Made by a program: the position numbers and the translations under genes | Source: Nostoc commune NIES-4072 | Lineage (GTDB): Bacteria > Cyanobacteriota > Cyanobacteriia > Cyanobacteriales > Nostocaceae | NCBI RefSeq assembly: GCF_003113895.1 | Contig: NZ_BDUD01000001.1 | Location: 3,934,037 to 3,998,036, forward strand | Reading direction: 5' to 3' | Length of the DNA: 64,000 nt | Shown: positions 47,823-64,000 of the stretch, in pieces | Position numbering within the stretch: the stretch's first letter is position 1 | How the letters are laid out: each line of letters starts with the position of its first letter | Notes under the pieces: model-generated | What the model was told of the DNA's origin: nothing | The model's input: only the letters and a program-made list of their open reading frames with translations | Database searches by the model: none

Positions 47823-47828
47823 ACTCAA

Positions 47829-48529: not shown

Positions 48530-49069
48530 ATGCGTCTAAATCAATATACTGTTGGCGACTATACTCCAGGCGCACCATACTGGAAGCAACTTCTTTGGTA
48601 CTTTGTAGGGTCGCCCTTAGTTGAAAGTTATTGGCTCCCGCTTTCAGCTTTTAAAATTTGGATACTCCGCATTTTTGGGGCTAAAATCGGTCAAGGTGTC
48701 CGGATTAAACCTGGAGTACGGGTAAAGTTTCCCTGGCGGTTAAACATTGGTGATTTTGTTTGGATTGGGGAAGATGCGTGGATAGATAACGTCGCTCCTG
48801 TGACTATCCAAAGTCATGTTTGCCTGTCTCAAGGAGTGTATCTCTGCACTGGCAATCATGATTGGAATCATCCTGATTTTAAATTGATTAGTGCCCCAAT
48901 CCATATTCAAGAGAGTAGTTGGATTGCCGCCAGATCGGTAATTGGGCCAGGAGTAACAGTTGGTCGCGGAGCGGTACTAACTTTAGGTGGCGTTACTGGG
49001 AAATCACTAGAGCCAATGACTATTTATGCAGGTAATCCGGCTCAACCTATCAAGCAACGAAAGCTTTGA
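48530..49069 (+). CDS. wcaF: WcaF-like acetyltransferase (hexapeptide repeat)
   Basis: This 179-residue protein has the WcaF layout: an N-terminal 'NQYTVGDYTPGAPYWKQLLW' segment, then left-handed beta-helix hexapeptides ('IGQGVRIKPGVRVKFPWRLN', 'IGDFVWIGEDAWIDNVAPV') with the catalytic-region 'GNHDWNHPDFKLI' and 'GPGVTVGRGAVLTLGGV'. It transfers acetyl from acetyl-CoA to a sugar of the polysaccharide. It is the last gene of the locus, 135 bp after the YdcF-like gene. Confidence 0.9.
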   Translation: MRLNQYTVGDYTPGAPYWKQLLWYFVGSPLVESYWLPLSAFKIWILRIFGAKIGQGVRIKPGVRVKFPWRLNIGDFVWIGEDAWIDNVAPVTIQSHVCLSQGVYLCTGNHDWNHPDFKLISAPIHIQESSWIAARSVIGPGVTVGRGAVLTLGGVTGKSLEPMTIYAGNPAQPIKQRKL

Positions 49070-49937
49070 TTTATATCCCCCCAAATACCCGTCAACAAAT
49101 TATCAGTTATCAGTTCAGATAATTGGGTTTAAGTCCCCAACTATATCGGCGTTAACTGACAACTGAACAGGACTTACGCAACTGATCAAACATATCTACG
49201 TTTTTTTAATACATTTGTTCTATAAGGCAAGCGATCGCTTGCGCTGTTTTGTCAGTTCGCACTGTACCAGTTGGGTAAGTTCTGCTGAAAACTAATCACT
49301 CTTTGCCGATTAGTGGTAAGCGTAAGTCATGACTCACTGCGGTTTTGTGGTCTACCTAAGTAAAGCAAGTGACGAACTCGTAAGGCCAGGTTTAAACAAC
49401 ACGATCAACCTTTAGTTGCAGCGCAAAGCCGAAACCAAAGATGTTAGCTTTCTGTTACAGAGGTTTACATTATCTTAAATGTAAAGTTTTGTAACAAAAT
49501 CAAATTTTCCCAGAAAAACCTACCTAATAAAACTGATAGATAAATAGAGGTTAGGCAATATAAAGTTGCATCTTTTACCGTAAAGCTGTACCAACAGACA
49601 TTTTAGAAAGCAAAAGGCAGGTGGAACACCTGTTCTAACATAGCGCTTTCAGAATTGGAAATTGATATCAAAATATGGCAAAGACTATTTGCAGATTTGA
49701 AATTATTTAAATCTGCATAGCTAGATGCCAACCTCTAATGGTTATGACAAATGTGCAAAATAAGCTTGAGGCAAAAGCAGATGAGAGAAGAGACGATATT
49801 AGTTTCAGAATTAGAATCTCGTTTAAAAAAAATTGGGTAATTAGGAGGAAAATCTGCACCAGCAAGTCCACTATTAAAGCTGAGTGGAGTTTATCAAAGT
49901 GCATCAAAATAGTTCTCTAGGAAAAGAAATAACTTAT
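49070..49937 (+). promoter_or_regulatory. Long upstream region of the PKS locus
   Basis: This stretch of about 870 bp separates the polysaccharide locus from the PKS locus. It holds a MITE-like palindrome (49168-49285), a 7-bp-stem hairpin ACTAATC...GATTAGT at 49291-49314, and AT-rich DNA with GTAAAGTTTTGTAAC near 49480. The PKS promoter is probably here. I looked for GTA-N8-TAC (NtcA-type) sites and saw none with the right spacing. Short frames near 49738-49920 are not convincing genes. Confidence 0.5.
49168..49285. repeat. MITE-like palindromic element
   Basis: The ends are inverted copies: CAGGACTTACGCAACTGA on the left and CAGTTGGGTAAGTTCTGCT on the right (the latter reads AGCAGAACTTACCCAACTG on the opposite strand). 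The 118-bp element contains the perfect 16-base palindrome GCAAGCGATCGCTTGC at 49227-49242. Elements with AGGACTTACGCA ends are dispersed in Nostoc-type genomes. It has no coding capacity. Confidence 0.65.
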
Positions 49938-52900
49938 ATGGATGCTGACAGTCAAGAACAATTGCATAGTCAACTGCAACGAGTTCCAATTGCCATTATA
50001 GGTATGTCTGCTTTATTTCCCAAAGCTAAAAACTTGCAGGAATATTGGGATAATATTATTGGCAAAGTCGATTGCATTACTGATATTCCCACTTCTCGCT
50101 GGAATATAGACGACTACTACGACCCAGATCCCACATCTCCTGATAAAACCTACTGTAAGCGGGGTGGATTCATCCCAGACATCGATTTTAACCCTCTGGA
50201 ATTTGGGCTACCTCCAAATATTCTGGAAGTAACAGATGTCGCTCAGTTACTCTCGTTGGTTGTGGCGAAAGCGGCGATGGAAGATGCGGGTTACGGCGAT
50301 AGCAACTTTAGTCACGAACGTACTGGAGTTGTTCTAGGTGTAGTTGGGGGATGTATGCAATTAATCACCCCACTGACTAGCCGATTACAATATCCTGTTT
50401 GGCAAAAAGTTCTTAAAAGCAGTGGCTTATCCGACGAGGATATAGAGAAAATTATCCAGAAAATGAAATTGGCTTATGTAGGTTGGGAAGAAAATTCTTT
50501 TCCAGGTTGGCTAGCTAATGTGGTTGCTGGACGGATTGCTAACCGCTTGAACTTAGGAGGAATGAACTGTGTAGTGGATGCAGCCTGTGCCAGTTCGATG
50601 AGTGCTGTCAAGATGTCTATCAGTGAGTTGCTCGAAGGACGTTGCGACATGATGATCACTGGTGGCGTGGAAACTGATAACTCGATTTTCAACTATATGT
50701 GTTTCAGTAAAACACCTGCTTCATCTAAAAAGGACTTTTTGAATCCTTTCGATGCCGAGTCGGATGGAATGATGGTTGGTGAAGGTATCGGGATGTTGGT
50801 GCTCAAACGGCTTGCGGATGCAGAACGCGATCGCGATCGCATTTATGCAATCATTAAAGGAATCGGCACTGGTAGTGACGGTAAATATAAGAGTATTTAC
50901 GCCCCACGGAAAGAAGGGCAAGCCAAGACATTACGTCGGGCCTACGAAGATGCAGGCATTCCCTGTACAAGCATTGAATTGATTGAAGCTCATGGTACGG
51001 GAACTCCAGCTGGTGATTTATGTGAGTTTACGGCCTTAAACGAAGTTTTTAGCGAGAACAACCCTAACAAACAGCATATTGCTCTGGGAAGCGTCAAATC
51101 TCAAATTGGACATACCAAAGCGGCTGCGGGTTCAGCAAGTATAATTAAAGCTGCTCTAGCTATTTATCACAAGGTACTACCACCTACGATTAACGTTACC
51201 CAACCGAATCCCAAGTTTGGGATGGAAAACTCCCCATTTTACTTAAATACAGAGGTTAGACCGTGGCTTCAGTCTGATCCAAACATTCCAAGACGAGCTG
51301 GAGTGAGTTCATTTGGTTTTGGGGGCACAAATTATCATCTAGTTCTAGAAGAATATAACAAAGAGCAGAGCTATGCCTATCGTATACACACCGCTCCTGG
51401 GTCTGTCTTAATTTGGGCTGATACTCCAGAGCAGTTATTAGTTAAGTGCGAAGCCGCAAAGTTACAGTTAGAATCTGGCACTGGCAATCAATACTATCAA
51501 GAACTAATTAATTCTTCTAAATCTTCAGATATTCCAATTCCCACTGCAAGAGTAGGGTTTATTGCTGTATCCAAAGTTGAGGCTGGTGAATTACTACAAG
51601 TTGCAATTAATCAGCTAAAAAAACAACCGCAAGCAGCATCTTGGGAACACCCGCGTGGAGTCTATTACCGTAAGGCTGGTATGTCTCTAGAAGGCAAAGT
51701 AGTGGCTTTGTTTCCTGGACAAGGGTCTCAGTATTTGAATATGGGTAGTAAATTAGCCATTAACTTCCCTGCCCTACGTCAAACCTACAAGTCTCTGGAC
51801 GAGCTATTTATTCAAGATGGTTTACAACCAATTTCTCAAACTGTTTTTCCTCGTCCGACCTTTGATAGTGAGGAAAAAACTAGCCAGACTAAAGCATTGC
51901 AACGAACTGAAAATGCTCAACCAGCCATAGGCGCTTTTAGTGTAGGTTTATACAAAATTCTACAACAGGCTGGGTTCAAGGCAGATTTTGTTGCAGGGCA
52001 TAGCTTTGGGGAATTGACCGCTCTTTGGGCTGCTGGAGTTTTAAGCGACGCAGATTACTTTTACCTAGTAAAAGCTAGGGGTCAAGCAATGAGTAAGCCG
52101 AACAATGGCCCTGATTGTGATACTGGTACTATGCTGGCTGTGAATGGAGAGATTCGGAAAATCCCAGAAATCATCCAGGGTTTGTCGCATCTGAATATTG
52201 CCAACTTTAATTCTCCGAATCAGGTCGTGCTATCGGGTGCTAATCCAGAAATTGGCACTATACAACAAATTCTTAGCAAACGTGGTTATTCTGTTACCCC
52301 ACTACCTGTATCTGCGGCATTCCACACTCGTTTTGTCAGTCATGCTTGCGAACCCTTTGCCGATGCTGTGCGGTCGATCGCCTTCAATAGTCCAAAAATT
52401 CCGGTTTATTCCAATACAACTGGCGAAGCTTACTCAACTAAGCCTGAGATTATTCAAAAAACTTTAGAAAGTCATCTTTTACAGTCAGTGTTGTTTGAGC
52501 AAGAAATAGAGAATCTCTATGCAGCAGGTGGTTATTGCTTCGTAGAGATTGGGCCTAGGCAGATTCTGACTAATTTTGTGAAGACTACCCTTGGCGATCG
52601 CCCACATCTAGCAATAGCTTTGAATCCCAGTCGGGAAAAAGACAGTGACCTCCAGATGCGGCAAGCTGTTATGCAATTGCGTATAGCTGGTTTATCCTTA
52701 CAAGATATTGATCCCTATCAGTTTGAGCCTCAAACCATTGAAGTGGTTAAATCGCCAGTAAACATCACTCTCAATGGTAGTAATTATGTCAGCGATAAAA
52801 CGAAAGCTACTTTTGAGAAAGCTTTACAGGATGGTCACAAAATCCAATCAAGTATACTTAATAGTGCGGAGTTACAACAAGAGATTCAGCACTCTGTAGT

Positions 52901-54146
52901 GAATCAATTTCAGAACAATTGCGTAAATCAGTCTCTTTTAACTGAAGTTATAAATAGCAACACTAATGTAACTTCACCAGAATCTACAGATATCAACATA
53001 AATGTGATTTCATGCCAACAACCCGAACCTGCAAATGTCAACGCAGGTGCAATTCCAACGGAGGTTGTGACTATGACATCCCCTTACACACCAACTGATA
53101 TTGGCGATTCTACAGATTCATACTTCATTATTCCTATCATTGAGTCAAACGAGATGCTGCAACCTATTTCTCCCTCCCGTTCCAATATCGAGCAAATTGT
53201 AGGCACTGGTCTAGAGAAGCTTTTAACACAATTTTGTAACCATCAATCAGAAATTCTGCGAGTACATGAGCAATATCTCAAGAATCAAGCAGAATGTTCA
53301 CAGTCCTTTTTCCAGTTGATGCAGCAACAATACCGTGTGTTATTAGGAAGCAACAACATCAAATCTCAGCAGGTTGAGTTAGCTCTAGAGGAAACACCAA
53401 CTGACAATTTTGCTCCTCAGACACCTGCTAATACTATGGCTTCTAGCACACCTATTGAAGCACCTCAGACCAAAGTCAACAACAACCTGACTATAGTACC
53501 TCCTACTAAAGTTGAGAGTTCATTACCAGAAACAAAGTCAGTAGCATCTGTTGAAACAGTGGATAAAACTGAGTTATTGATGCAAGTCATTAGTAGTAAA
53601 ACAGGCTATCCAGTAACGATGTTGAACTGGGAAATAAACCCAGGTGCAGATTTAGGTATCGATGCTGTCAAATGGATGGACATCATCAGTGCAATGCAAG
53701 AATTACTTCCAGATGTACCAAAAGTTAATCCTAAAGAATTGGCAGAACAGCCAACTCTTCGCCAAGTTGCTGAATATATTCAAATCTGTATTCCTCAGCC
53801 AACATCTCCTCAAATACCAGTATCTACATCTGTTAATATTGAAACTGTTGTCCCACAACCAGTATCTACTGAAGACACTTTTTTAACCGAGTCGCTATTA
53901 AATGTTATTAGTGACAAAACAGGTTATCCAGCAGAAATGTTAGAGACAGAGATGGATTTAGAAGCAGATTTGGGTGTTGACTCCATCAAGAGAGTAGAAA
54001 TCATTGGTGCAATGCAGACATTATTTCCCAACTTGCCTAAGTTGAGTCCAGAGGAATTGGGAGAACAGCGAACCATTAGCAAGATTGCTAATTATTTGGG
54101 GACAAAAATTACAGAAGCTAAAAAAAAATTCCTTATCGCAGTTTGA
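49938..54146 (+). CDS. Iterative type I PKS, KS-AT-ACP-ACP (HglE/PfaA-like)
   Basis: From ATG 49938 the protein has 1402 residues; an upstream GTG at 49884 is less likely. The ketosynthase (about 15-480) has Cys217 in 'VVDAACASSMSAV', the His motif 'EAHGTGTPAGD' and 'GHTKAAAGSAS'. The acyltransferase (about 555-890) has 'ALFPGQGSQYLNMG' and Ser689 in 'AGHSFGELTALWAAG'. After a low-complexity linker come two carrier domains: ACP1 'ADLGIDAVKWMDI', with Ala1243 at the phosphopantetheine site, and ACP2 'ADLGVDSIKRVEI', with Ser1349. This is the front of an HglE/PfaA-type synthase, which normally continues into a ketoreductase. Here the frame stops soon after an A9 run while the expected continuation is open in the +1 frame. 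Confidence 0.9.
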   Translation: MDADSQEQLHSQLQRVPIAIIGMSALFPKAKNLQEYWDNIIGKVDCITDIPTSRWNIDDYYDPDPTSPDKTYCKRGGFIPDIDFNPLEFGLPPNILEVTDVAQLLSLVVAKAAMEDAGYGDSNFSHERTGVVLGVVGGCMQLITPLTSRLQYPVWQKVLKSSGLSDEDIEKIIQKMKLAYVGWEENSFPGWLANVVAGRIANRLNLGGMNCVVDAACASSMSAVKMSISELLEGRCDMMITGGVETDNSIFNYMCFSKTPASSKKDFLNPFDAESDGMMVGEGIGMLVLKRLADAERDRDRIYAIIKGIGTGSDGKYKSIYAPRKEGQAKTLRRAYEDAGIPCTSIELIEAHGTGTPAGDLCEFTALNEVFSENNPNKQHIALGSVKSQIGHTKAAAGSASIIKAALAIYHKVLPPTINVTQPNPKFGMENSPFYLNTEVRPWLQSDPNIPRRAGVSSFGFGGTNYHLVLEEYNKEQSYAYRIHTAPGSVLIWADTPEQLLVKCEAAKLQLESGTGNQYYQELINSSKSSDIPIPTARVGFIAVSKVEAGELLQVAINQLKKQPQAASWEHPRGVYYRKAGMSLEGKVVALFPGQGSQYLNMGSKLAINFPALRQTYKSLDELFIQDGLQPISQTVFPRPTFDSEEKTSQTKALQRTENAQPAIGAFSVGLYKILQQAGFKADFVAGHSFGELTALWAAGVLSDADYFYLVKARGQAMSKPNNGPDCDTGTMLAVNGEIRKIPEIIQGLSHLNIANFNSPNQVVLSGANPEIGTIQQILSKRGYSVTPLPVSAAFHTRFVSHACEPFADAVRSIAFNSPKIPVYSNTTGEAYSTKPEIIQKTLESHLLQSVLFEQEIENLYAAGGYCFVEIGPRQILTNFVKTTLGDRPHLAIALNPSREKDSDLQMRQAVMQLRIAGLSLQDIDPYQFEPQTIEVVKSPVNITLNGSNYVSDKTKATFEKALQDGHKIQSSILNSAELQQEIQHSVVNQFQNNCVNQSLLTEVINSNTNVTSPESTDININVISCQQPEPANVNAGAIPTEVVTMTSPYTPTDIGDSTDSYFIIPIIESNEMLQPISPSRSNIEQIVGTGLEKLLTQFCNHQSEILRVHEQYLKNQAECSQSFFQLMQQQYRVLLGSNNIKSQQVELALEETPTDNFAPQTPANTMASSTPIEAPQTKVNNNLTIVPPTKVESSLPETKSVASVETVDKTELLMQVISSKTGYPVTMLNWEINPGADLGIDAVKWMDIISAMQELLPDVPKVNPKELAEQPTLRQVAEYIQICIPQPTSPQIPVSTSVNIETVVPQPVSTEDTFLTESLLNVISDKTGYPAEMLETEMDLEADLGVDSIKRVEIIGAMQTLFPNLPKLSPEELGEQRTISKIANYLGTKITEAKKKFLIAV

Positions 54147-54897
54147 TAACCAACAGTCTCTGCTAAATCACCATATTCGGCGCTGTCTAGTCAAACTTAT
54201 GCATCTACCTGCACCTGATTTTTGGGAATTTACTCTACCCCACTTCCGTACTTGTTTGCTTACCGATGACGGTTCCCTCATTACCAATAGACTAGCCAAA
54301 CTATTAAGTGAGCGAGGTTGGCAGGTAGTGGTTCTTAGCTTTCCTCAATCTATAGTGAGCGACACCGGAGGCGATCGCCTCCCTCTACCTCAAGGAGTTA
54401 ATCGCATCGAGCTTACAGATTTAAGTGAGCAGCAATTACAACAAAAACTAGTAGCTATCTCAGAAACTTACGGCGCAATAGGAGCTTTCATTCATCTGCA
54501 CCCTGAACATCAAGTCTGCGATGCTAAATCAGAAAAGTCGATCCTCAAGTATGTATTTCTCTTAGCAAAACATTTGAAGCGATCGCTTAATCAAGCAGCA
54601 CTCACAGGACGCAGTTCTTTCCTTTGTGTTGCTCATCTCGATGGTGAATTTGGATTAGGAACAATCATTGACTTTAGTGCCATTAGTGGTGGTCTATTCG
54701 GTTTGACAAAAACTCTTAATTTAGAGTGGGAGAAGGTGTTCTGCCGGGCGATCGATTTGAGTCCCGAATTCAATCCCGAAACTTCAGCACACTTTATTAT
54801 CGCTGAACTTCACGATCCTAATTCCCTCATTTCGGAAGTTGGATATAACTCTCAAGGAAGAGTAACTTTAGTATCTGAAATAGCATCTCTCCCCTAA
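54085..54897 (+). CDS. KR structural-half region, out of frame with the upstream PKS
   Basis: This frame begins at TTG 54085 and overlaps the PKS end by 62 bp; the first ATG is at 54199. Its text 'HHIRRCLVKLMHLPAPDFWE', 'CLLTDDGSLITNRLAKLLSE', 'GWQVVVLSFP' and 'GGLFGLTKTLNLEWEKVFCR' matches the inactive structural half of the ketoreductase that follows the ACPs in PfaA/HglE-type synthases. The region before ATG 54199 is part of that homology, so an independent start there would lose conserved residues. If the A9 run at 54120-54128 were A8, it would be in frame with the upstream PKS. It is either a real split gene, a frameshift mutation, a slippage site or a sequencing error. Confidence 0.7.
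   Translation: MLIIWGQKLQKLKKNSLSQFDNQQSLLNHHIRRCLVKLMHLPAPDFWEFTLPHFRTCLLTDDGSLITNRLAKLLSERGWQVVVLSFPQSIVSDTGGDRLPLPQGVNRIELTDLSEQQLQQKLVAISETYGAIGAFIHLHPEHQVCDAKSEKSILKYVFLLAKHLKRSLNQAALTGRSSFLCVAHLDGEFGLGTIIDFSAISGGLFGLTKTLNLEWEKVFCRAIDLSPEFNPETSAHFIIAELHDPNSLISEVGYNSQGRVTLVSEIASLP
54120..54128 (+). other. A9 homopolymer at the PKS frame break
   Basis: Nine A residues encode three Lys codons in the KS-AT-ACP frame, which then ends at TGA 54144-54146. Removing one A makes GCT-AAA-AAA-AAT-TCC and joins the upstream frame to the KR structural half. It is the only simple spot where a single-base change restores one continuous reading frame. Confidence 0.8.
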
Positions 54898-54903
54898 TAG
54901 TCT

Positions 54904-55006
54904 ATGTCATTAATTTTGAGGAGTAAAAAAGCTCGTAGTAAGAACTTTAATCCCAAAGTTTTAAGTACTGAAGTGCTGACTACGAACTTATCAAAATTAA
55001 CGACAT
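54904..55006. repeat. 103-bp MITE-like palindrome between KR halves
   Basis: The left arm ATGTCATTAATTTTGA (54904-54919) and the right arm TCAAAATTAACGACAT (54991-55006) are inverted with one mismatch. Inside, GCTCGTAGTAAGAACTTTAA pairs imperfectly with AAGTGCTGACTACGAACTTA. The CTCGTAGTAAG...CTTACTACGAAC type of palindrome is dispersed in Nostoc-type genomes. The element starts seven bases after the end of the KR structural-half frame. Confidence 0.75.
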
Positions 55007-55022
55007 GAACCATTATTAATTT

Positions 55023-55093
55023 ACAGGGCTAAGTTAAATAAATCTTCAGGTAGCTCAAAATTCGAGTTTCCTGAAGCTCATCTCAACCCCTGT
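55023..55093 (+). other. Nested hairpin upstream of the KR-DH gene
   Basis: CTTCAGG (55044-55050) pairs with CCTGAAG (55070-55076), extended by further partly paired bases around an AAAATTC-containing loop. An outer ACAGGG/CCCCTGT stem encloses it. It lies 25 bp before the ATG of the KR-DH gene and could be part of the adjoining repeat or a leader structure. It has no T-run. Confidence 0.4.
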
Positions 55094-55117
55094 GTTGAAA
55101 CAATCCAAATAAGCAAA

Positions 55118-56869
55118 ATGAACACAAACGCCAAGATTGATTCATCATCGGTTATTCTTGTCAGTGGTGGCGGTAGAGGAGTGACAGCACAATGTGTTAT
55201 CCAACTAGCGAAGCAATATCAGTGCAAATTTATCTTACTAGGTCGCTCCAAACTTGTCAAAACTGAACCAGAATGGGCTAAAGATTGCTTCGATGAAGCT
55301 GAGTTAAAAAAGCGTATTATGCAGGATTTAATTGCCCAAAATGAGAAACCTACACCGTTAAAAGTTAAACAAGTATTCAATCATTTATTAGCTCAACGAG
55401 AAATTGCAAAAACAATCTCTACCATTCAGCAAACTGGAGGGCAGGTAGAATATCTCAGTGTAAATATTACCAATAGTTCTGCTTTACAGGCAGAAGTAGC
55501 ACCAGTAGTTCAGCGTTTAGGACGAATTACAGGAATTATTCATGGGGCTGGAAATTTAGCAGATAAATTAATTGAGAATAAAACAGAAGAGGATTTTGAT
55601 ATCGTTTACACTACCAAAATAGAAGGTTTAGAAAGCTTACTTAGCTGTGTAGACCCCAGTCAATTAGATTGCATCATTTTGTTTTCCTCGTTTGTTGCTT
55701 TTTACGGTAATCCAGGTCAATCAGATTATGCATTAGCTAATGAAATACTTAATAAAACAGCCTACCTACTCCAGAGGAAATATCCGTATTGTCGCGTAGT
55801 TTCTATAGGTTGGGGGCCTTGGGATGGTGGTATGGTTACGCCACAATTAAAGAAAGTATTCGCTCAACAAGATATAGAACTAATTCCTTTAGAAGTTGGT
55901 GCCCAGATATTAGTTGATGAATTGAAGTCTGCTCATAATGGAATTGCACAAACTCTGGTAATGAGTAACCCAATTGTCGCCCAACCCAAGCAGCTAAATT
56001 CGGAATTACAATCATTTCGTGTGTCTCGTCAATTAAAATTAACAGCTAACCCTTTTGTATACGATCACGTAATTGGCGGTAATCCCGTTTTGCCAGCCAT
56101 GTGTAGCATTGCGTGGATTGCAAATACTTGTGAGCAACTCTACCCAGGTTACAAATTTTTCAGTTGTAGCAATTATAAAGTTCTCAAGGGAATTATTTTT
56201 GATAATACGTTGGCAAGAGAATACTTTTTAGATTTAAAAGAAATCAGTAAAACTGATACTGGAGAAATAGATTTTGAAGTACTACTATGGAGTGAAAGTG
56301 CTAAAGCTATACCTCATTATCATTACAGTACTAAAATAAAAGTTGTGCAGCACATCCCCTCATCTGATACTTATGAATCTTTTAATCACAGTCAAGACCC
56401 GGAAACTTTGAGGCTATTACCTTATGAAAATGGCGCATTATTTCATGGGTTAAGTTTTAAGGGATTAAAGCGGATTCTCAATATTACTCCCGAAAAACTG
56501 ACTGCTCAATGTTGTTTAGATAAGGTTGAAATCAAAAAACAAGGTCAATTTCCTTTGCAAACATTTAATCCTTATACGGGAGATATTTTATTTCAGTGTT
56601 TAGTAGTTTGGGTGAGGCACTTTGATAATTTAGCTAGCTTGCCTTTACAAGTGCAAAGGCTAGAGCAATTTAAAGCCATTCCCTTCGATGAAGAATTTTA
56701 TGTTTCCGTAGAAGTTATTTCAAGAAGTGAAACGAATATTTTTGCTAATATTACAGCACACGATGCTCAAGGCCAAATCTATGTTCATATATCGCAAATG
56801 CAGGTAACTGCAAGCGCTCGGCTAAACCTTCTGTTTTTACAAAACTATTGTTTAGCAAGAGAGAATTAA
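55118..56869 (+). CDS. Ketoreductase-dehydratase protein (C-terminal PfaA/HglE-type part)
   Basis: The 583-residue protein has an N-terminal catalytic ketoreductase (about 10-285): NADPH motif 'VILVSGGGRGVTAQCVI', 'GIIHGAGNLADKLIENK', Ser in 'IILFSSFVAFYGNPGQ' and Tyr-Ala-Leu-Ala-Asn in 'SDYALANEIL', then 'VSIGWGPWDGGMVTP'. The C-terminal part (about 300-575) is a double-hotdog dehydratase with the HxxxGxxxxP motif 'DHVIGGNPVLP' (His317). Its natural upstream partner is the KR structural half encoded 5' of the MITE-like element. Together they would reduce and dehydrate the ACP-bound beta-keto intermediate. No clear Shine-Dalgarno sequence precedes the ATG. Confidence 0.88.
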   Translation: MNTNAKIDSSSVILVSGGGRGVTAQCVIQLAKQYQCKFILLGRSKLVKTEPEWAKDCFDEAELKKRIMQDLIAQNEKPTPLKVKQVFNHLLAQREIAKTISTIQQTGGQVEYLSVNITNSSALQAEVAPVVQRLGRITGIIHGAGNLADKLIENKTEEDFDIVYTTKIEGLESLLSCVDPSQLDCIILFSSFVAFYGNPGQSDYALANEILNKTAYLLQRKYPYCRVVSIGWGPWDGGMVTPQLKKVFAQQDIELIPLEVGAQILVDELKSAHNGIAQTLVMSNPIVAQPKQLNSELQSFRVSRQLKLTANPFVYDHVIGGNPVLPAMCSIAWIANTCEQLYPGYKFFSCSNYKVLKGIIFDNTLAREYFLDLKEISKTDTGEIDFEVLLWSESAKAIPHYHYSTKIKVVQHIPSSDTYESFNHSQDPETLRLLPYENGALFHGLSFKGLKRILNITPEKLTAQCCLDKVEIKKQGQFPLQTFNPYTGDILFQCLVVWVRHFDNLASLPLQVQRLEQFKAIPFDEEFYVSVEVISRSETNIFANITAHDAQGQIYVHISQMQVTASARLNLLFLQNYCLAREN

Positions 56870-56918
56870 GTACTGGTAATTTACTATCACTTTGCTTATA
56901 AATTAGAAAATATAAAAA

Positions 56919-59900
56919 ATGACAGTAAAACTAGCAATTGTAGGCATGGAAGCATTTTTTGGTACGTGTTATGGATTAGATAAATTTGAGCGTAGTATTT
57001 ACGATGCGACTCAGTATTTTATTCCTATTCCTCCTATACGCCGTCAAGACATACAGGCAAAGCTACCAACACTGGAAGAAGAGGACTATCATAACAATCA
57101 AGCATTGTTGGGAGCTTATATCCAGGATTTGGAAATCGATGCGTTTCATTTCAAAATCCCGCCTAACGACATAGACAAACACGATCCTAAGCAATTGTTA
57201 ATGCTAAAGGTGATTGATCAAGCTTTAAGAGATGCAAAGTTAGACCAAAAGCAAAAAAGATTGCAAATGGCTATTGTTGCTGTCATTAACGAAAACCAAG
57301 TTAATCAACTTGATAGAAAGTTGGTTGAAACTGGAGATAATGACAACATTCTTAGTGAAAAAACAAATACTGTTTTCCAAAAAATTTCTACTTTATGGAA
57401 TACTTCAGGGCCTAACTTTGTTGTCAATGCTAAAGAGAATTCCGTTTTTGAGGCGCTAGAAATAGCAAAAACGTTGCTTACTGTCGGCCCAGTAGATTGT
57501 GTGGTGGTAAGTGCTGTGAATTTTGCTGGTGTTGATTGTGTGATGTCTGGCAAACCAACCCTCAGTTATGATTATAATGCCAGTGGCTCGATAGTCGGTG
57601 AAGGAGCCGGAGCTATAGTTTTAAAGCGATATGAAAAAGCCAAGCACGATCGCGATCGCATTTATGCAGTAATTGACGCGGTTAGTCACCTATACGAAAG
57701 TTCAACTAATCCAGCCGAATCAGTTAAACAATCTTGCCAGAAAGCTTTTGCCAAAGCCGGAGTTAGCCCCGTAGACATCGGCTACCTAGAAGTGTTTGCC
57801 GGTGGAAATGAACAGCAGGATCACGCAGAAATCCAGGGTTTAATCGAAGCTTATCAAGTTCCTAACTCCGAATTGAGTTGTGCGATCGGCAGTGTCAAGG
57901 CTAACATCGGACACACTTATATTGCCTCTGGGATCGCCAGCTTGATTAAAACTGCTCTTTGTCTATACAACCGTTACATTCCTGCAACACCGCAGTGGAC
58001 TAGCCCGAAAAACCCCGAAATTTGGCAAGACAGCCCTTTTTATGTCGCTACTGAATCTAGACCCTGGTTTTTAAATTCAGCACAAACAACAAGAGTAGCT
58101 GCTATAAATAGCCTAGCTAGCGATGGAACTTATGCACACATAATTTTATCAGAAGACTCCGGCTCACAAGATTGCAACCATAGGTACTTAGAACAAAGTC
58201 CCTTCTATCTTTTCCCGATCGCTGCTAATAATCAATCTGGATTACTAGAGCAACTTGAGACATTAGAACAGACTATTAAAAATAGTTGCTCTTTGTCTAC
58301 CGTTGCTAGTCAGACCTTTGCCACCTTTCAAAATAATCCACAGGCCATTTATGCTTTAGCGATGGTTGGACACAACCAAGACGAATTGCTTCGAGAAATC
58401 CAGCGCGGACGTAAGGGCATCGCCAATGCCTTTGCTTGCGGGAAAGACTGGAAAAGCCCATCAGGAAGCTATTTCACCGCCAAGCCCCAAGGTAAACAGG
58501 GTCATATCGCTTTTATTTACCCAGGTGCCTTTAATTCCTACATTGGCATGGGTCGGAAACTTTTCTACTTCTTTCCCAAAATTTTTGAACGCGCTACTAG
58601 TTTCGTTTCTCAACCTAACCTATTTTTTCGTGAGAAATTACTCTATCCCAGAAGTCTCAATCAAATATCTAAAAGGCAGCTAGAAGATATAGAAGCAAAA
58701 TTACTCGATGATCCGCTATCGATGCAGGTTTCTGGAACAGGTTTTTCAGTATTGTTAACCCACATATTGAGAGATTATTTCCAAATTCAACCTCAAGCTG
58801 CCTTTGGTTACAGTATGGGCGAAAGCACCATGCTGTATTCCTTGAATGTTTGGACTAGTGGCGACAATGTTAACAAATTTGTTCATTCATCAGAACTGTT
58901 TCAAACACGCTTAGTAGGTGCGAAAAAAACAGTCCGAGATTATTGGGGCTTACCCGAAAATCTACATGAAGACGAAGCTGTGTGGCATAGTTATGTTCTT
59001 ATGGCTCCACTATCTAGCGTTGTCTCTCGCCTCAAACAAGAAACTCAAGTTTATTTGACAAATATTAATACGCCAAATGAAGTTGTGATAGCTGGAGAAC
59101 CCCAAGCCTGTCAGAGAGTAATAGCAGATTTGAATTGCGATGCTTTCCGCGCACCTGCTGACTTAGTACTCCATTGTGAACCGATGGCTAGTGAATACGA
59201 TCAGCTAATTAAACTGAACTCTTCACCAACTCAAAATGTCTCAGGGATTAATTTTTATTCTTCAGCTAATTATGATTTAATGCCCCTTGATAAAGAATCT
59301 CTGGCTCATCGTGTTAGCCAAGGATTTTGTCAGCGCGTTGATTTTCCACGACTGCTTAACCAGGTCTATGAAGATGGAGCTAGAATATTCATTGAAGTTG
59401 GCCCTGGTAACACCTGTTCCCGATGGATTGCTGATAATCTCCAGCAAAAAGAACACGTTACTATTTCCATCAATCGTAGAGGAGCCGATGAGTATACTAC
59501 TATTGTTAAAGCTTTGGCACAACTTTTAAGTCATCGCGCCTCTGTTGATTTGTCACCACTGTACTGTACAAGAGCAGAAAGTAGCAATCAAAAGAAATCT
59601 TTTCTTAGAAATATCAACTTAGAAAAGTATCCATTGATGCCTACAAGTTTGAGTGTAAACAATAACAAAAGCGATGAAAATTTAGATTCAATCCACCTAT
59701 CTCAAAGTACTATTTCTGTCTCGAAAAAGTCTAGTAACGTTATATTTGATCAAGCTGATATACTTGAGTTTGCCCAAGGACAAGTTTCAAAAGTATTGGG
59801 TAAAGATTATGAAATTATTGACCCTTATCCAAGACGAGTAAGGCTTCCCAGTCCTCCATATCTGTTTATCAGCCGTGTAAACAAAATTGAAGGCGTCAGA

Positions 59901-60926
59901 GGTGAGTATGGTTATGGTTTTGTCCAAACTGAATACGATCTGCCTTCTGATGCTTGGTTTGCTGTTGATGGTCAAATTCCTATAGGAATATATGAAGAAG
60001 CAGGTCAAGGTTTCTTACTTTTACTTGGTTACTTGGGAACTGATTTCGATAATCAAGGGCAACGGTCATTTCGCTTACTAGATTTAACTGCTACATTTCT
60101 CAGTGACCAGCCAGAAGACATCAAAACTATGCGTTACGATGTTAAAATCAACTCTGCTGTGAAAACTGCATCAAACTTGGTCGTTTTTTTTAGTGGCGAG
60201 TGTTTTCTTAACGAAAAATTATTTCTAAAAATTTCTGGAGGTTGTGCAGGATTATTTTCTGATGAAGAATTGGAGCAAGGACAAGGTATTATTTTTACTG
60301 AGCGAGACGAAAAAGAAAGAAGCCAAATTCAGAAACAGTCTTTTCAACCGTTACTATCGTGTCAAAAACTTACTTTTGATCATCAAGATTTACTTCATTT
60401 AACTCAAGGAAATATTGCTGCTTGCTTCGGTACTAATTATCAACAAGATGGCTTAAATCCATCACTGCGATTACCCTCAGAGAAGCTGTTGATGTTTGAT
60501 AAGGTGTTATCTGTTGATCCTCAAGGAGGAGCTGCGGGATTAGGTTTAGTCATTGGTACAAAAACTGTAGAGCCAAATGACTGGTATTTTCTCTGTCACT
60601 TTAAAAATGACCCGACTATGCCCGGTAGCCTCATGGTTGAAGGTAGCTGTCAACTATTGCAATTTTATCTGCTATTTTTGGGATTACAAACTTGCACTAA
60701 AAATGCTAGATTTCAAGCTATTGCTCAACTTCCACAAATAGTGCGCTTTCGTGGACAAGTTACGCCAGCTTTTAGTACTTTAACCTATCGATTAGAAGTG
60801 ATTGAAATGGAGCGATCGCCTAACCCCTTTGCTATAGCTAATGTCGAAATTATTTATGGTAATAAAACAATTGCTTATATCAAAAATTTGGGGATACAGT
60901 TATCTGAAAAAAATATAAAGCCATAA
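56919..60926 (+). CDS. CLF-AT-DH-DH protein (PfaB/PfaC-like, HglC/HglD-like)
   Basis: The 1335-residue protein starts with a ketosynthase fold (about 1-410) whose active-site Cys position is Glu173 ('VVNAKENSVFEAL'). The first His motif is also lost ('EVFAGGN'), while 'GHTYIASG' keeps the second. It is therefore a chain-length-factor-like, non-condensing domain. An acyltransferase follows (about 510-880; 'IAFIYPGAFNSYIGMG', Ser632 in 'FGYSMGEST'). Two hotdog dehydratase domains end the protein. The first (about 945-1150) has 'DAWFAVDGQIPIGIYEE' and no His at the usual place. The second (about 1160-1330) has 'WYFLCHFKNDPTMPGS' with His1227. The layout combines PfaB (CLF-AT) with the DH-DH end of PfaC. 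It would pair with the upstream KS. Confidence 0.85.
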   Translation: MTVKLAIVGMEAFFGTCYGLDKFERSIYDATQYFIPIPPIRRQDIQAKLPTLEEEDYHNNQALLGAYIQDLEIDAFHFKIPPNDIDKHDPKQLLMLKVIDQALRDAKLDQKQKRLQMAIVAVINENQVNQLDRKLVETGDNDNILSEKTNTVFQKISTLWNTSGPNFVVNAKENSVFEALEIAKTLLTVGPVDCVVVSAVNFAGVDCVMSGKPTLSYDYNASGSIVGEGAGAIVLKRYEKAKHDRDRIYAVIDAVSHLYESSTNPAESVKQSCQKAFAKAGVSPVDIGYLEVFAGGNEQQDHAEIQGLIEAYQVPNSELSCAIGSVKANIGHTYIASGIASLIKTALCLYNRYIPATPQWTSPKNPEIWQDSPFYVATESRPWFLNSAQTTRVAAINSLASDGTYAHIILSEDSGSQDCNHRYLEQSPFYLFPIAANNQSGLLEQLETLEQTIKNSCSLSTVASQTFATFQNNPQAIYALAMVGHNQDELLREIQRGRKGIANAFACGKDWKSPSGSYFTAKPQGKQGHIAFIYPGAFNSYIGMGRKLFYFFPKIFERATSFVSQPNLFFREKLLYPRSLNQISKRQLEDIEAKLLDDPLSMQVSGTGFSVLLTHILRDYFQIQPQAAFGYSMGESTMLYSLNVWTSGDNVNKFVHSSELFQTRLVGAKKTVRDYWGLPENLHEDEAVWHSYVLMAPLSSVVSRLKQETQVYLTNINTPNEVVIAGEPQACQRVIADLNCDAFRAPADLVLHCEPMASEYDQLIKLNSSPTQNVSGINFYSSANYDLMPLDKESLAHRVSQGFCQRVDFPRLLNQVYEDGARIFIEVGPGNTCSRWIADNLQQKEHVTISINRRGADEYTTIVKALAQLLSHRASVDLSPLYCTRAESSNQKKSFLRNINLEKYPLMPTSLSVNNNKSDENLDSIHLSQSTISVSKKSSNVIFDQADILEFAQGQVSKVLGKDYEIIDPYPRRVRLPSPPYLFISRVNKIEGVRGEYGYGFVQTEYDLPSDAWFAVDGQIPIGIYEEAGQGFLLLLGYLGTDFDNQGQRSFRLLDLTATFLSDQPEDIKTMRYDVKINSAVKTASNLVVFFSGECFLNEKLFLKISGGCAGLFSDEELEQGQGIIFTERDEKERSQIQKQSFQPLLSCQKLTFDHQDLLHLTQGNIAACFGTNYQQDGLNPSLRLPSEKLLMFDKVLSVDPQGGAAGLGLVIGTKTVEPNDWYFLCHFKNDPTMPGSLMVEGSCQLLQFYLLFLGLQTCTKNARFQAIAQLPQIVRFRGQVTPAFSTLTYRLEVIEMERSPNPFAIANVEIIYGNKTIAYIKNLGIQLSEKNIKP

Positions 60927-60989
60927 ATGAAATTAATCTAATTACATAAAAAACGTCAAAATTGTTGTAATTATCATAGGATTTTCAAA

Positions 60990-62663
60990 ATGTTAGGGAA
61001 TGGAAATAAAGCAAAAGATGCCTCCACAATTTTACTAGAAGGTCGTGATGTGACAAGTTCTCTGAATAATATGAACAAAGCTAGGAGTGATTTAGATTCA
61101 ATTGCCTTTGAGGAAATGGAAATCAAATCTCGACTGTTGAATTTGCACCAACCTTGTTATGTTATCCAAGATCAGAATCGGGTTGGTATCGCCAACCAAG
61201 ATAATTTTTACAACCCTAACAACAGTCAAAGTGAAAAATTAGAGACTTTGATGATTGCACCGCCACTACCACCGCAACAGTTAGGCGATCGCGACTTCCT
61301 CACTTCTCACAGTGTAAAATATGCATATATGGCTGGTGCAATGGCAGGTGGCATTGCTTCCGCAGAATTAGTAATTGCTTTAGGAAAAGCAGGCATTTTA
61401 GGGAGTTTTGGTGCGGCTGGTTTGGTTCCTTCCCGCATTGAAGCAGCTATTAACCAAATTCAGCAAGCCCTTCCCCAAGGCCCTTACGCCTTTAACCTGA
61501 TTCACAGTCCCAGCGAAGAAGCCTTAGAACGCCGCGCTGTAGATTTATATCTCAAACACGGTGTTAGAACTGTAGAAGCTTCAGCATTTCTGGATTTGAC
61601 ACCCCATATCGTCTATTATCGAGCTGCGGGACTAAGTTTGAATGCGAACGGTCAAATCGAAGTTAAAAATAAAATCATTGCCAAAATTTCTCGGCAAGAA
61701 GTAGCGACAAAATTTTTACAGCCAGCCCCAAGAAAAATTCTTCAACAACTGGTTGAGCAACAACTGATCACAGAATTACAAGCTACTCTAGCAGAAAAAG
61801 TGCCGATGGCTGATGATATTACCACAGAAGCAGATTCCGGTGGACATACAGATAATCGTCCTTTGGTTTGTCTTCTACCCGCCATCCTTGTTCTTCGAGA
61901 TCAGATACAGCAAAAGTATCGCTATGACAAACAGGTAAGAATCGGTGCAGCAGGAGGTATTGCAACACCTGAATCAGCATTAGCTGCCTTTATGATGGGG
62001 GCTAGTTATATAGTGACTGGTTCTATTAATCAATCTTGTGTTGAAGCTGGCACTTCTGTGCATACAAAAAACTTGCTAGCCCAAGCGAGTATGGCAGATG
62101 TAATTATGGCTCCTTCTGCTGATATGTTTGAAATGGGGGTAAAAGTACAACTGCTCAAACGCGGTACTCTTTTTCCAATGCGGGCGCAGAAATTGTATGA
62201 CCTTTATAGAAGTTACAACTCAATTGATGAAATTCCACTTGAGGAAAGACAAAAATTAGAAGAGCAAGTCTTTGGCAGAAACTTGGAAGCTATTTGGCAA
62301 GATACGGTTACTTTTTTCACTGAACGAGATCCAGAGCAAATCACTAGAGCAAACGATAATCCTAAGCGGAAGATGGCGCTAATTTTCCGTTGGTATTTAG
62401 GATTGTCTTCTCGTTGGTCTTCTTCTGGTGAAAAAGGGCGAGAAATGGATTATCAAATTTGGTGCGGGCCTGCTATAGGTGCTTTTAATGAATGGGTAAA
62501 GGAGTCTTATTTGGCTGAACCAAATGCACGATATGTGGTTGACGTTGCTCACCATATTATGACTGGAGCAGCTTATTTATACCGATTGCAAAGTTTGAAA
62601 TTTCAGGGTTTGCAAATGCCAGCCCACTACCGTTACTATCGCCCAATTCCTTTAGTGTCTTAA
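60990..62663 (+). CDS. PfaD-type FMN-dependent trans-acting enoyl reductase
   Basis: The 557-residue protein has the nitronate-monooxygenase-like TIM barrel of PfaD: 'AGAMAGGIASAELVIALGKA' near the N-terminal third, 'GLVPSRIEAAINQIQQALPQ', 'TEADSGGHTDNRPLVCLLPA' (flavin/substrate region) and the phosphate-binding 'IGAAGGIATPESALAAFMMG'. A C-terminal helical domain ends with 'MTGAAYLYRLQSLKFQGLQ'. In PUFA-type synthases it reduces selected enoyl intermediates in trans, which sets the saturation of the chain. The length is usual for the family. It follows the CLF-AT-DH-DH gene by 63 bp. Confidence 0.93.
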   Translation: MLGNGNKAKDASTILLEGRDVTSSLNNMNKARSDLDSIAFEEMEIKSRLLNLHQPCYVIQDQNRVGIANQDNFYNPNNSQSEKLETLMIAPPLPPQQLGDRDFLTSHSVKYAYMAGAMAGGIASAELVIALGKAGILGSFGAAGLVPSRIEAAINQIQQALPQGPYAFNLIHSPSEEALERRAVDLYLKHGVRTVEASAFLDLTPHIVYYRAAGLSLNANGQIEVKNKIIAKISRQEVATKFLQPAPRKILQQLVEQQLITELQATLAEKVPMADDITTEADSGGHTDNRPLVCLLPAILVLRDQIQQKYRYDKQVRIGAAGGIATPESALAAFMMGASYIVTGSINQSCVEAGTSVHTKNLLAQASMADVIMAPSADMFEMGVKVQLLKRGTLFPMRAQKLYDLYRSYNSIDEIPLEERQKLEEQVFGRNLEAIWQDTVTFFTERDPEQITRANDNPKRKMALIFRWYLGLSSRWSSSGEKGREMDYQIWCGPAIGAFNEWVKESYLAEPNARYVVDVAHHIMTGAAYLYRLQSLKFQGLQMPAHYRYYRPIPLVS

Positions 62664-62667
62664 TACT

Positions 62668-62784
62668 GTTATACCAATTCTGTATGAAGATGCACAGAAC
62701 ATTAAACGAACCGCCAAGTACGCCAAGAGCGCCAAGAATAGAGGGTTACTCCTAAAGTACAGCTTCACATTAAACTGGTATTAC
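62668..62784. repeat. MITE-like element with CGCCAAG tandem repeats
   Basis: The ends GTTATACCAATTCTGTATGAAG and AGCTTCACATTAAACTGGTATTAC are imperfect inverted repeats, with 17 of 24 positions matching by eye. The interior carries three CGCCAAG units with a 9-bp period at 62712-62738. Such elements are dispersed in Nostoc-type genomes. It lies just downstream of the PfaD-like gene and could act as a transcript end, which is unproven. Confidence 0.6.
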
Positions 62785-63087
62785 TTTATTTGTAGCAGAA
62801 AACAAGTTGTATTCTTTATTGTTAGATTCTGCCTTCGTTTGCTCAAGTTTATCTATTGTCTAACTAAAAATACAAATTTTTGTAAAAATAGCATAATTTG
62901 TTGATTTAGAACTGAAAAGTTAAAAGAGGTTGGTAGTTTTAGCTGAATAAGATAACTAAAAGTTCTTGATTGTATTCCCAAAACTTATTAATAAAAATCA
63001 AGATTAAATACTGCGAAGCTCTTAGTAATTCAGCAAATTAATTAACTACAATACATTTATTTTAAATAAAAATAAATTGCTTAATTT
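62785..63087 (+). promoter_or_regulatory. AT-rich region upstream of the stand-alone ACP
   Basis: About 300 bp without a gene, rich in A and T, separates the hgl/pfa-type genes from the ACP and the next PKS. A separate promoter for the ACP-PKS pair is likely in this stretch. No clear boxes, operator or RNA structure is visible. Confidence 0.4.
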
Positions 63088-63390
63088 ATGCAAATAAACC
63101 ACCTGATTACTATTTCAAATTCTGGACAGTCTCAAATTGCAGAGACTATTCAAGCTTGGTTAGTTAACCAGTTTGCCGAGCGGCTGGAAATTGATCCAGA
63201 AGATATAGATATTCATGAGCCTTTTGATAACTACGACTTAAATTCAGTAGAAACAATTATCCTATTGAAAAAGTTAGAAAATTGGCTGGGACGCAATCTC
63301 AATCCTACCCTAATCTTTAATTACCCAAATATTGCAGAACTTGCTAAACGCCTAGCTGAAGAAACTAGTGCAACAAGGCAGAAGGCATAA
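63088..63390 (+). CDS. Stand-alone acyl carrier protein
   Basis: This 100-residue protein is an ACP/PCP-type four-helix domain: 'IQAWLVNQFAERLEIDPEDI', the phosphopantetheine site 'FDNYDLNSVETIILLKKLE' with Ser53 (reading L-N-S rather than the usual L-D-S), and 'LNPTLIFNYPNIAELAKRLA'. It is discrete and precedes a type I PKS by 110 bp. It may carry the product of the hgl/pfa-type enzymes to that PKS or serve as a loading carrier. A phosphopantetheinyl transferase would have to activate it, and none is in the window. Confidence 0.9.
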   Translation: MQINHLITISNSGQSQIAETIQAWLVNQFAERLEIDPEDIDIHEPFDNYDLNSVETIILLKKLENWLGRNLNPTLIFNYPNIAELAKRLAEETSATRQKA

Positions 63391-63500
63391 GAACAGAAAG
63401 CTGTGTTGAGTTAGAACTCAATTGTGAATACTCATTGTTCAGTATTCAGCACTATTTTAACGATGACAAAAATGTGGTGCAATCAAAGAAGGTAATTGAA

Positions 63501-64000
63501 ATGGAAGCGATCGCAATTATTGGTATTGGCTGCCGATTTCCTGGGGCAAAAGATCCAGAGGCTTTTTGGCAACTTTTGTGTAACGGAGTTGATGCCATTA
63601 CAGAGATCCCTAAAAATCGGTGGGATCTGGATAAATACTATGACCCAAACCCAGAAGTTATTGGTAAAACAAACTCGCGCTGCGGCGGTTTTTTGCAGCA
63701 AGTAGACCAGTTTGACCCTCACTTTTTCGGAATTTCGCCAAGAGAAGCCATGTCTCTAGACCCCCAGCAACGCCTCTTATTAGAGGTGGCTTGGGAAGCA
63801 TTAGAAGATGCTGGACAGGTGCGAGAACAGCTATCCGGCTCACGCACTGGCGTGTTTGTAGGTATTTCCACAAACGATTACACCTTAATTCAGGGAGAGG
63901 GTTATTCTCAGCAGATCCAAGGCTACGATCTGACCGGTAATGTGTTGAGCCTTGCTGCTGGTCGCCTTTCCTATGTATTTAACTTCAAAGGGCCAAGCAT
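63501..64000 (+). CDS. Type I modular PKS, N-terminal ketosynthase, cut by window edge
   Basis: ATG 63501 has AGAAGG eight bases upstream. The 166 visible residues start a standard type I ketosynthase: 'EAIAIIGIGCRFPGAKDPEA', 'ITEIPKNRWDLDKYYDPNPE', 'FFGISPREAMSLDPQQRLLL', 'GVFVGISTNDYTLI' and 'AAGRLSYVFNFKGPS'. The active-site Cys lies just beyond the edge. There is no loading domain before the KS, so it needs an acyl starter from elsewhere. The preceding stand-alone ACP and hgl/pfa-type genes are candidates. Unlike the HglE-like KS it belongs to the usual modular/cis-AT cyanobacterial type. Confidence 0.93.
   Translation, partial: MEAIAIIGIGCRFPGAKDPEAFWQLLCNGVDAITEIPKNRWDLDKYYDPNPEVIGKTNSRCGGFLQQVDQFDPHFFGISPREAMSLDPQQRLLLEVAWEALEDAGQVREQLSGSRTGVFVGISTNDYTLIQGEGYSQQIQGYDLTGNVLSLAAGRLSYVFNFKGPS

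What the first reader, a model, noticed from the sequence alone, without database searches (positions are those of the whole stretch)
49938..64000. Hgl/Pfa-type lipid synthase directly upstream of a stand-alone ACP and a modular PKS
The order KS-AT-ACP-ACP, KR half, KR-DH, CLF-AT-DH-DH, PfaD-type ER is a full reductive iterative synthase with one active KS. It is followed by a discrete ACP and a PKS that opens with a KS and no loading module. This suggests a hybrid pathway in which an hgl/pfa-type acyl chain primes a modular PKS. The known heterocyst glycolipid locus is followed by other genes (hetM/hglB, hetN, hetI), none of which appears here. The product is unknown to me.
Basis: partly seen in the sequence, partly recalled or inferred. 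Interest (0 to 1): 0.75.

Follow-up and report, generated by a model that had tools for sequence, protein, structure and literature searches.

The report
Lipid synthase feeding hybrid polyketide-peptide line
A Nostoc-like cyanobacterium carries, beside its ordinary heterocyst-lipid genes, a second lipid-making enzyme set joined to a polyketide-peptide assembly line; this kind of cluster was described in 2026, but here its parts are seen to be swapped between strains like cassettes.

Summary
In an 8.2-Mb genome (Nostoc, judged from its closest named relatives), window 49884-62663 encodes a Pfa/Hgl-type iterative lipid synthase with one active KS. A stand-alone ACP of the Asl1650 family follows, then (past the window) three PKS modules, a trans-acting A-C NRPS protein and an MFS exporter. 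The order is kept in 7 of 8 relatives; in the eighth the parts lie on three contigs. It is not the heterocyst-glycolipid locus: that one, with hetM and hetI, lies elsewhere in this genome.

The kind is known: 'clade II' cyanobacterial PUFA-PKS-NRPS triple hybrids, product unknown (PMC13291983, 2026). My additions: the 'Rossmann protein of unknown function' is the detached structural half of the KR; hgl loci coexist with the hybrid in 9 of 9 genomes, against that paper's general statement; five related back ends carry FAAL-ACP or ligase-ACP loaders instead of the lipid synthase; and two lipid-synthase types and two PKS1 reductive blocks (with or without C-methyltransferase) occur in all four combinations on a nearly constant back end, with tree conflict (AU p < 1e-50). 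Chain hand-over through the ACP is inferred, not shown.

The parts
49884..54146 (+). PfaA/HglE-like protein, KS-AT-ACP-ACP (likely start ATG 49938); one active KS (Cys235, His370, His410), AT GHSFG, first ACP with Ala at the Ser site (GIDAVK), second intact (GVDSIK)
   Evidence: TIGR02813 1584.9 bits; Pfam KS, AT and PP-binding; motifs
54199..54897 (+). stand-alone structural (pseudo) half of the PfaA ketoreductase; the 'protein of unknown function' with Rossmann fold of the published clade
55118..56869 (+). catalytic KR plus PKS-type DH
   Evidence: PF08659, PF14765, PF21089; KR motifs GGGRGVT and YALAN
56919..60926 (+). PfaB/PfaC-like fusion: inactive KS-like domain, AT (GYSMG), one FabA-type DH
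   Evidence: Pfam; TIGR02816 161 bits, cut-off 144.3; Cys to Glu and His to Phe in 9 of 9
60990..62663 (+). PfaD-type enoyl reductase
   Evidence: TIGR02814 683.1 bits
62660..62786 (.). copy of a dispersed genomic repeat in the gap between PfaD and ACP, next to where the mosaic pattern changes
   Evidence: 38 of 45 rows fall on this stretch, many over only 30-40 bases; not found in the PfaD-ACP gaps of the relatives compared
63088..63390 (+). stand-alone acyl carrier protein of the Asl1650 family (LNS phosphopantetheine site)
   Evidence: PF00550; PDB 2afd Asl1650, 109.7 bits, next best 36.1
63435..64000 (+). start of PKS1 (KS-AT-DH-cMT-KR-ACP, 2246 aa; likely ATG 63501); continues outside the window at C1:3997471-4004211, followed by PKS2, PKS3, A-C protein and MFS

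Best explanation
It is a PUFA-synthase-like/PKS/NRPS triple-hybrid gene cluster of the published cyanobacterial 'clade II'. Shown: gene content, order, conservation, active-site residues, mosaic history. Inferred: the Pfa-type complex (one active KS, KR built from two proteins, DHs, PfaD) builds a long acyl chain on PfaA's carrier domain. The chain is passed to the Asl1650-type ACP, which stands where related clusters have a FAAL-ACP or ligase-ACP loader, and then to the KS of PKS1. PKS1 extends it by a C2 unit, methylates (cMT) and reduces/dehydrates it; PKS2 adds a beta-hydroxy unit; PKS3 adds a beta-keto unit. The PKS3 C domain joins an amino acid (perhaps Ser) that the A domain loads in trans onto the PKS3 PCP. 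The terminal C domain releases the lipo-polyketide-peptide onto an unknown nucleophile and the MFS protein exports it.
For: Domain content. Order kept in 7 of 8 relatives with the stand-alone KR half, among them two from other genera; the same parts in permuted order in G436 and, as far as fetched, G428; pfa, ACP, PKS1 and PKS2 with an 11-kb gap after pfaD in a member of another family, G084:C2. Apart from the NRPS A domain no adenylating loader is among the cluster genes. Of 6 related back ends without pfa in the stretch fetched, 5 show a loader with a carrier domain that matches this ACP at 38-66 bits: FAAL-ACP in G246 and G310, an AMP-binding protein with PP-binding domain in G361, G351 and G436b; the sixth, G417, is cut off by its contig end. 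FAAL loading of an ACP ahead of a PKS is established (passages of PMC11837247). Direct transfer of a C22 acyl from a Pfa complex to a first KS is proposed for chitinimine (PMC13291983 section 9). C domains keep His and Asp in 8 of 8.
Against: No product or transfer has been observed. In G350 the pfa genes, ACP-PKS1-3 and A-C lie on three contigs, and housekeeping genes follow pfaD. G111 has pfa and ACP without a PKS in the stretch fetched. The lipid block and the back end have different histories, which modularity explains but loose coupling would too. PKS1's KR has His at the catalytic Tyr position in 4 of 4 cMT+ copies, so its reduction state is uncertain.
Confidence: 0.74

Rival explanations
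1. Two parallel assembly lines joined late, as described for zeamine: the lipid synthase makes its chain separately and a condensation domain joins it to the PKS-NRPS product.
For: Zeamine is described that way (PMC13291983 introduction, passage). The line ends in an unassigned C domain with HHIIADM in 8 of 8 that could use a lipid nucleophile.
Against: No aminotransferase or thioester reductase hit among the cluster proteins scanned, so the lipid has no evident amine or alcohol terminus; PKS1 would then lack a starter; the ACP sits where loaders sit in related clusters.
Confidence: 0.14
2. Neighbours without a shared product: the lipid synthase makes an envelope or other lipid by itself, and the ACP-PKS-NRPS line is primed by a FAAL in trans, for example the one about 30 kb downstream.
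For: A FAAL-like protein exists at C1:4048578-4050434. Lipid block and back end recombine separately. G350 has them apart. Related back ends use FAAL or ligase loaders.
Against: That FAAL has an ACP next to it (C1:4047931-4048176) and its own PKSs. Linkage is kept in 7 of 8 relatives and in other arrangements elsewhere, which chance neighbours would hardly show.
Confidence: 0.1
3. A second heterocyst-glycolipid synthase (hgl paralogue).
For: 52-66% identity to the own hgl proteins.
Against: The canonical hgl locus with a HetM-type thioester reductase and HetI lies elsewhere, and its PfaD-HetM pair is present in 9 of 9 genomes; no thioester reductase in this cluster. A 2020 paper's title, seen only in reference lists, says HglEA but not HglE2 makes the glycolipids in Anabaena PCC 7120; that HglE2 belongs to this clade is recall.
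Confidence: 0.02

Closest known systems
Clade II cyanobacterial PKS-NRPS-PUFA synthase-like triple hybrids (PMC13291983, 2026)
   Same: Split pfaA with an intervening Rossmann-fold gene, fused pfaBC with one or two DH, no CLF, PKS-NRPS directly flanking; three PKS modules as in the named Nostoc strains; proteins labelled N. flagelliforme CCNUN1 match the KR half (79%) and the ACP (77%)
   Different: The paper states that these strains lack the capacity for heterocyst glycolipids and leaves the Rossmann gene unassigned; here the hgl locus is present and the gene is the KR's structural half. I read sections 7 and 9 and passages; its supplement was not available to me.
Chitinimine / megapolipeptin pathways (clade III)
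   Same: Pfa complex thought to hand its acyl chain to the first KS of a PKS-NRPS (PMC13291983 section 9)
   Different: Here a separate ACP lies between; no aminotransferase, pyruvyl transferase or thioesterase hit among the proteins scanned; short NRPS part
Zeamine / fabclavine pathways (clade I)
   Same: PUFA-synthase-like plus PKS-NRPS
   Different: Those have aminotransferase, extra KR and thioester reductase; zeamine joins two lines late
Heterocyst glycolipid (hgl) locus
   Same: Homologous HglE, KR-DH, KS-AT and PfaD proteins
   Different: hgl fuses the structural KR half to HglE, has a second KS with all three catalytic residues in the 1583-aa protein, and is followed by a HetM-type reductase, an SDR and HetI
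FAAL-primed PKS-NRPS clusters with a C-A-C back end (G246, G310 here; hapalosin in the review PMC11837247)
   Same: A-C part 63% identical, MFS, ACP ahead of the first KS
   Different: Primed by a ligase on a ready-made fatty acid instead of a dedicated lipid synthase

Membership tests
Clade II triple-hybrid clusters (PMC13291983) | pfaA split into two genes with a Rossmann-fold gene between | tested here: met
Clade II triple-hybrid clusters (PMC13291983) | fused pfaBC with AT and one or two DH, no CLF | tested here: met
   one KS-like domain, lacking Cys; AT; one FabA DH. Whether to call that domain CLF or dead PfaB-KS is a matter of naming.
Clade II triple-hybrid clusters (PMC13291983) | pfa genes directly flanked by PKS-NRPS, two or three PKS and one NRPS module | tested here: met
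Clade II triple-hybrid clusters (PMC13291983) | PfaA-KS falls in the published clade on the tree | not tested
   the paper's sequences were not at hand; proteins labelled N. flagelliforme CCNUN1 match at 77-79%
Clade II triple-hybrid clusters (PMC13291983) | strain lacks heterocyst-glycolipid genes (as the paper says of its strains) | tested here: not met
   hgl PfaD beside a HetM-type reductase in 9 of 9 genomes; HetI 444.7 bits, cut-off 370, in the own one. This is a remark about strains, not a structural feature of the cluster.
Heterocyst glycolipid (hgl) locus | hetM/hglB, hetN, hetI next to the PKS genes | tested here: not met
   not among the genes after pfaD here; counterparts at C1:6479619-6483222
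PUFA synthase-like (Pfa) lipid synthase | PfaA, PfaB/C and PfaD homologues above curated cut-offs | tested here: met
   TIGR02813 1584.9, TIGR02816 161, TIGR02814 683.1 bits
Asl1650-type acyl carrier protein | sequence relative with Asn before the Ser of the phosphopantetheine site (defining role of the Asn is recall) | tested here: met
   109.7 bits to 2afd, same NS in the alignment; LNS in 7 of 8 orthologues, LTS in G422
Zeamine/fabclavine pathways | aminotransferase and thioester reductase in the lipid half | tested here: not met
   no such hit among the proteins scanned

The most novel reading that the evidence does not exclude
These clusters are a natural combinatorial system. A lipid-synthase cassette (two types, alpha and beta) and a PKS1 reductive-block cassette (with or without C-methyltransferase) are exchanged independently by recombination onto a near-constant NRPS back end, and on a longer time scale the whole lipid synthase takes the place of a FAAL-ACP loader. 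The stand-alone ACP is the adaptor that makes the front end exchangeable, so each combination gives a different lipo-polyketide-peptide.
Probability: 0.5. Interest if true: 0.65.

Novelty: new member of a known kind. Interest (0 to 1): 0.45.

Why it matters
Pfa-type lipid synthases coupled to assembly lines are a recently recognised, product-poor class. This set of Nostoc genomes holds two lipid synthases and two reductive blocks in all four pairings with a nearly fixed back end, a ready-made natural experiment: comparing lipid extracts of these strains could assign each structural feature to a cassette. It also gives a role to a gene the 2026 survey left unassigned, and shows that the pathway is not a replacement for the heterocyst-glycolipid locus.

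Tried and rejected
Frameshift: ORFs 49884-54146 and 54085-54897 overlap near an A run, which suggested a broken hglE. Rejected: the second gene has its own ATG at 54199, 52 nt after the stop, and relatives keep this gap (L050: stop 1263, ATG 1316; the same 52 nt in most loci, not in G377, where the reported ORFs overlap).

Heterocyst-glycolipid paralogue: rejected, see rivals.

A plasmid copy: the source label of P0006/P0127 says '(plasmid)' for N. flagelliforme CCNUN1, but the plasmid collection gave only two Persicobacter records with partial matches; not followed further.

Amino acid: the A-domain pocket letters, read off the alignment and the sequence, give D-I-W-S-I-S-L-I-D-K, close to Ser codes that I know from recall; which columns form the code is recall too; not tested.

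Literature for a product or for mosaicism: searches brought none beyond PMC13291983; the library is open-licence only.

Low-identity loci: of 12 (10 from other families, G077 and G094:C42 from the own family) only G084:C2 has ACP and PKS; the others carry other followers.

A slip of mine: the script printed minus-strand ORFs in reversed coordinates; the genes after pfaD in G350 were rescanned with right coordinates.

Full report
What is there. The first protein is a PfaA-type KS-AT-ACP-ACP (TIGR02813, 1584.9 bits against a cut-off of 1010.1). Its second ACP reads GVDSIK; the first reads GIDAVK, so the usual Ser is Ala, here and in G381 and G350, while the other six orthologues have one ACP with GIDSIK. 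Then come a KR half, a KR-DH protein, a KS-like-AT-DH protein and a PfaD reductase (683.1 bits, cut-off 449.25), then a 100-aa ACP and a KS-first PKS. The window lies at C1:3934037-3998036 of an 8.2-Mb genome. The closest named relatives are Nostoc strains (3 loci: CHAB 5715 94%, CCCryo 231-06 93%, Chitinophaga YR573 51% in the best segment of PfaBC).

Beyond the window. PKS1 is KS-AT-DH-cMT-KR-ACP (2246 aa), PKS2 KS-AT-KR-ACP (1701 aa), PKS3 KS-AT-ACP-C-PCP (1588 aa), followed by an A-C protein (1006 aa, no carrier domain found) and an MFS transporter. So the A domain would load the PKS3 PCP in trans, and the line ends in a condensation domain. No thioesterase hit was seen in the eight proteins scanned. 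The C domains read NEHLISDA and HHIIADM and keep these motifs in 8 of 8 copies.

One active condensing domain. The KS of the PfaA-like protein has Cys235, His370 and His410. In the KS-like domain of the 1335-aa protein the Cys column is Glu and the first His column is Phe in 9 of 9 orthologues; the second His varies (Tyr in G377, Asn in G422). The corresponding protein of the own hgl locus starts with a KS that keeps all three residues, so the two synthases differ here.

Not the heterocyst-glycolipid locus. The own genome has that locus at C1:6479619-6497523 with HglE (1789 aa), KR-DH, a 1583-aa protein, PfaD, a HetM-type thioester reductase (TIGR01746 355.8 bits, cut-off 213.35), an SDR in the hetN place, and HetI (NF042922 444.7 bits, cut-off 370). 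In 9 of 9 genomes searched (own plus the eight relatives) the best hgl PfaD match lies beside the best HetM-type match, about 5-12 bases apart in eight and 212 in G422. The survey says the strains of this clade lack the capacity for these glycolipids; for the nine genomes examined here that does not hold. I could not show that they are the survey's own strains.

Linkage. The family-wide search with the KR half (217 genomes) gives eight relatives at 73-93% identity. In seven (G381, G349, G343, G365, G377, G439, G422) the whole order pfaA - KR half - KR-DH - pfaBC - pfaD - ACP - PKS1 - PKS2 - PKS3 - A-C is present (G381's contig starts inside pfaA; G422's PKS1 is in two ORFs; extra ORFs stand between PKS genes in G381, G349, G343 and G439). 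In G350 the pfa genes are followed by housekeeping genes (URO-D, RNase PH and 6-phosphogluconolactonase-type), ACP-PKS1-3 start 460 bases from the end of another contig, and A-C is on a third. CHAB 5715 shows the order from pfaBC up to PKS1 where its contig ends. G436 has the order ACP-PKS-PKS-A-C-pfaA...pfaD-MFS, and G428 shows A-C before pfaA and MFS after pfaD in the stretch fetched. G317 has pfa-ACP-KS-AT, G111 pfa and ACP without PKS in its stretch. Of 12 further loci, ten from other families, one, G084:C2, has the cluster up to PKS2 where the fetched stretch ends, with an 11-kb gap after pfaD and a cMT in PKS1.

What the ACP does. It is a close relative of Asl1650 of Anabaena PCC 7120 (PDB 2afd, 109.7 bits; next best 36.1). 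Back ends related to the A-C protein at 60-68% occur in other genomes. I looked at six that have no pfa genes in the stretch fetched: G246 and G310 begin with FAAL-ACP-KS; G361, G351 and G436's second locus have an AMP-binding protein with a carrier domain ahead of the first PKS (Pfam confirms AMP-binding and PP-binding for G361 and G351); G417 is cut off by its contig end. The carrier domains there match this ACP at 38-66 bits. A FAAL loads a fatty acid on such an ACP ahead of a PKS (passages of PMC11837247). The simplest reading is that the lipid synthase takes the place of the ligase and the ACP stays as adaptor. This is inference from anatomy.

Mosaic history. Gene by gene, own and G381 are 92-94% identical from the KR half to pfaD, while own against G349, G343, G365 and G377 is 73-86% over the pfa genes. 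Yet over all 15 pairs of these six genomes PKS3 is 93-97% and A-C 96-99% identical, against 73-96% for pfaBC, and the hgl PfaD and HetM of own against the other five are 96-98%. Within PKS1, own and G349 share a DH-cMT-KR block at about 94% nucleotide identity, while G381, G343, G365 and G377 lack the cMT and are 57-79% there. There are further switches: the first part of the PKS1 KS in G349 and G343, the ACP region of own, and the start of own PKS2. G350 is alpha and also has the cMT. So alpha/cMT+ (own, G350), alpha/cMT- (G381), beta/cMT+ (G349) and beta/cMT- (G343, G365, G377) all exist. Trees agree: on the lipid block own+G381+G350 is a branch with 100/100 support and own+G349 is rejected (AU p 7e-51); on the DH+KR block own+G349 has 100/100 support and own+G381 is rejected (p 1e-58). 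On PKS3+A-C neither pair is one clade (own+G381 p 0.02, own+G349 p 3e-9), and the beta group is rejected too (p 0.008). On the lipid block the genus is not one clade (p 6.6e-5), on PKS3+A-C it is (100/100). I named these groups after seeing identities, so the p values are descriptive. The alpha block's donor is unknown. All four cMT+ copies seen (own, G349, G350, G084) have His at the KR Tyr position and all five cMT- copies checked have Tyr, so the exchange may change more than a methyl group. G084 lies in another family, so the cMT+ form is not confined to this genus; which form is older I cannot say.

Literature. Searches. The one paper found that describes the kind is PMC13291983. I found nothing in print on mosaicism of these clusters or on the function of the KR-half gene, within an open-licence library and without supplements. 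The FurA paper (passages) lists all1649 and all1647 of Anabaena PCC 7120 under 'siderophore/cyanotoxin biosynthesis'; that these belong to the Anabaena form of this cluster is recall plus the Asl1650 match.

Verdict. A real, conserved and well-formed cluster of a kind that was catalogued recently, with a product still unknown. What is new here is the assignment of the KR half, the coexistence with hgl, the loader comparison and the four-way cassette mosaic.

Noticed in passing
C1:4029267-4050434 of the own genome (L017, L018), minus strand, about 30 kb downstream: A second cluster: FAAL-like protein with an ACP beside it, a weakly AurF-like protein, two PKSs, a TubC_N docking-domain protein, SDR, MGDG-synthase-like glycosyltransferase, UDP-galactopyranose mutase, methyltransferase and MFS; perhaps a glycosylated lipid-polyketide.
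   Followed up: partly
window 62660-62786: Dispersed repeat (38 of the 45 rows) sitting in the PfaD-ACP gap where the recombination pattern changes; not found at this place in the relatives compared. Could have served as a recombination site.
   Followed up: partly
window 37197-49069: Run of glycosyltransferases, an acyltransferase, a beta-helix protein, a DUF218 and a hexapeptide-repeat protein upstream, looking like a polysaccharide locus; no sign that it belongs to the cluster.
   Followed up: no
L051 (Chitinophaga sp. YR573): A Pfa-type locus in a genome labelled Chitinophaga whose PfaBC counterpart is 51% identical in its best segment, followed by a thioesterase-like gene; no PKS-NRPS recognised among the proteins scanned.
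   Followed up: partly
G084:C10, G185, G042, G160 (L105-L111): Pfa-type loci followed by an AurF-like protein (about 408 aa) and a shared set of genes, with no PKS in the stretch examined; looks like another uncharacterised lipid pathway.
   Followed up: no
G216, G174, G077, G094:C42 (L112-L114, L118, L119): Pfa-type loci followed by a roughly 100-aa HetM-like ACP and a 620-650-aa protein that I did not identify, a recurring arrangement different from both hgl and the hybrid.
   Followed up: no
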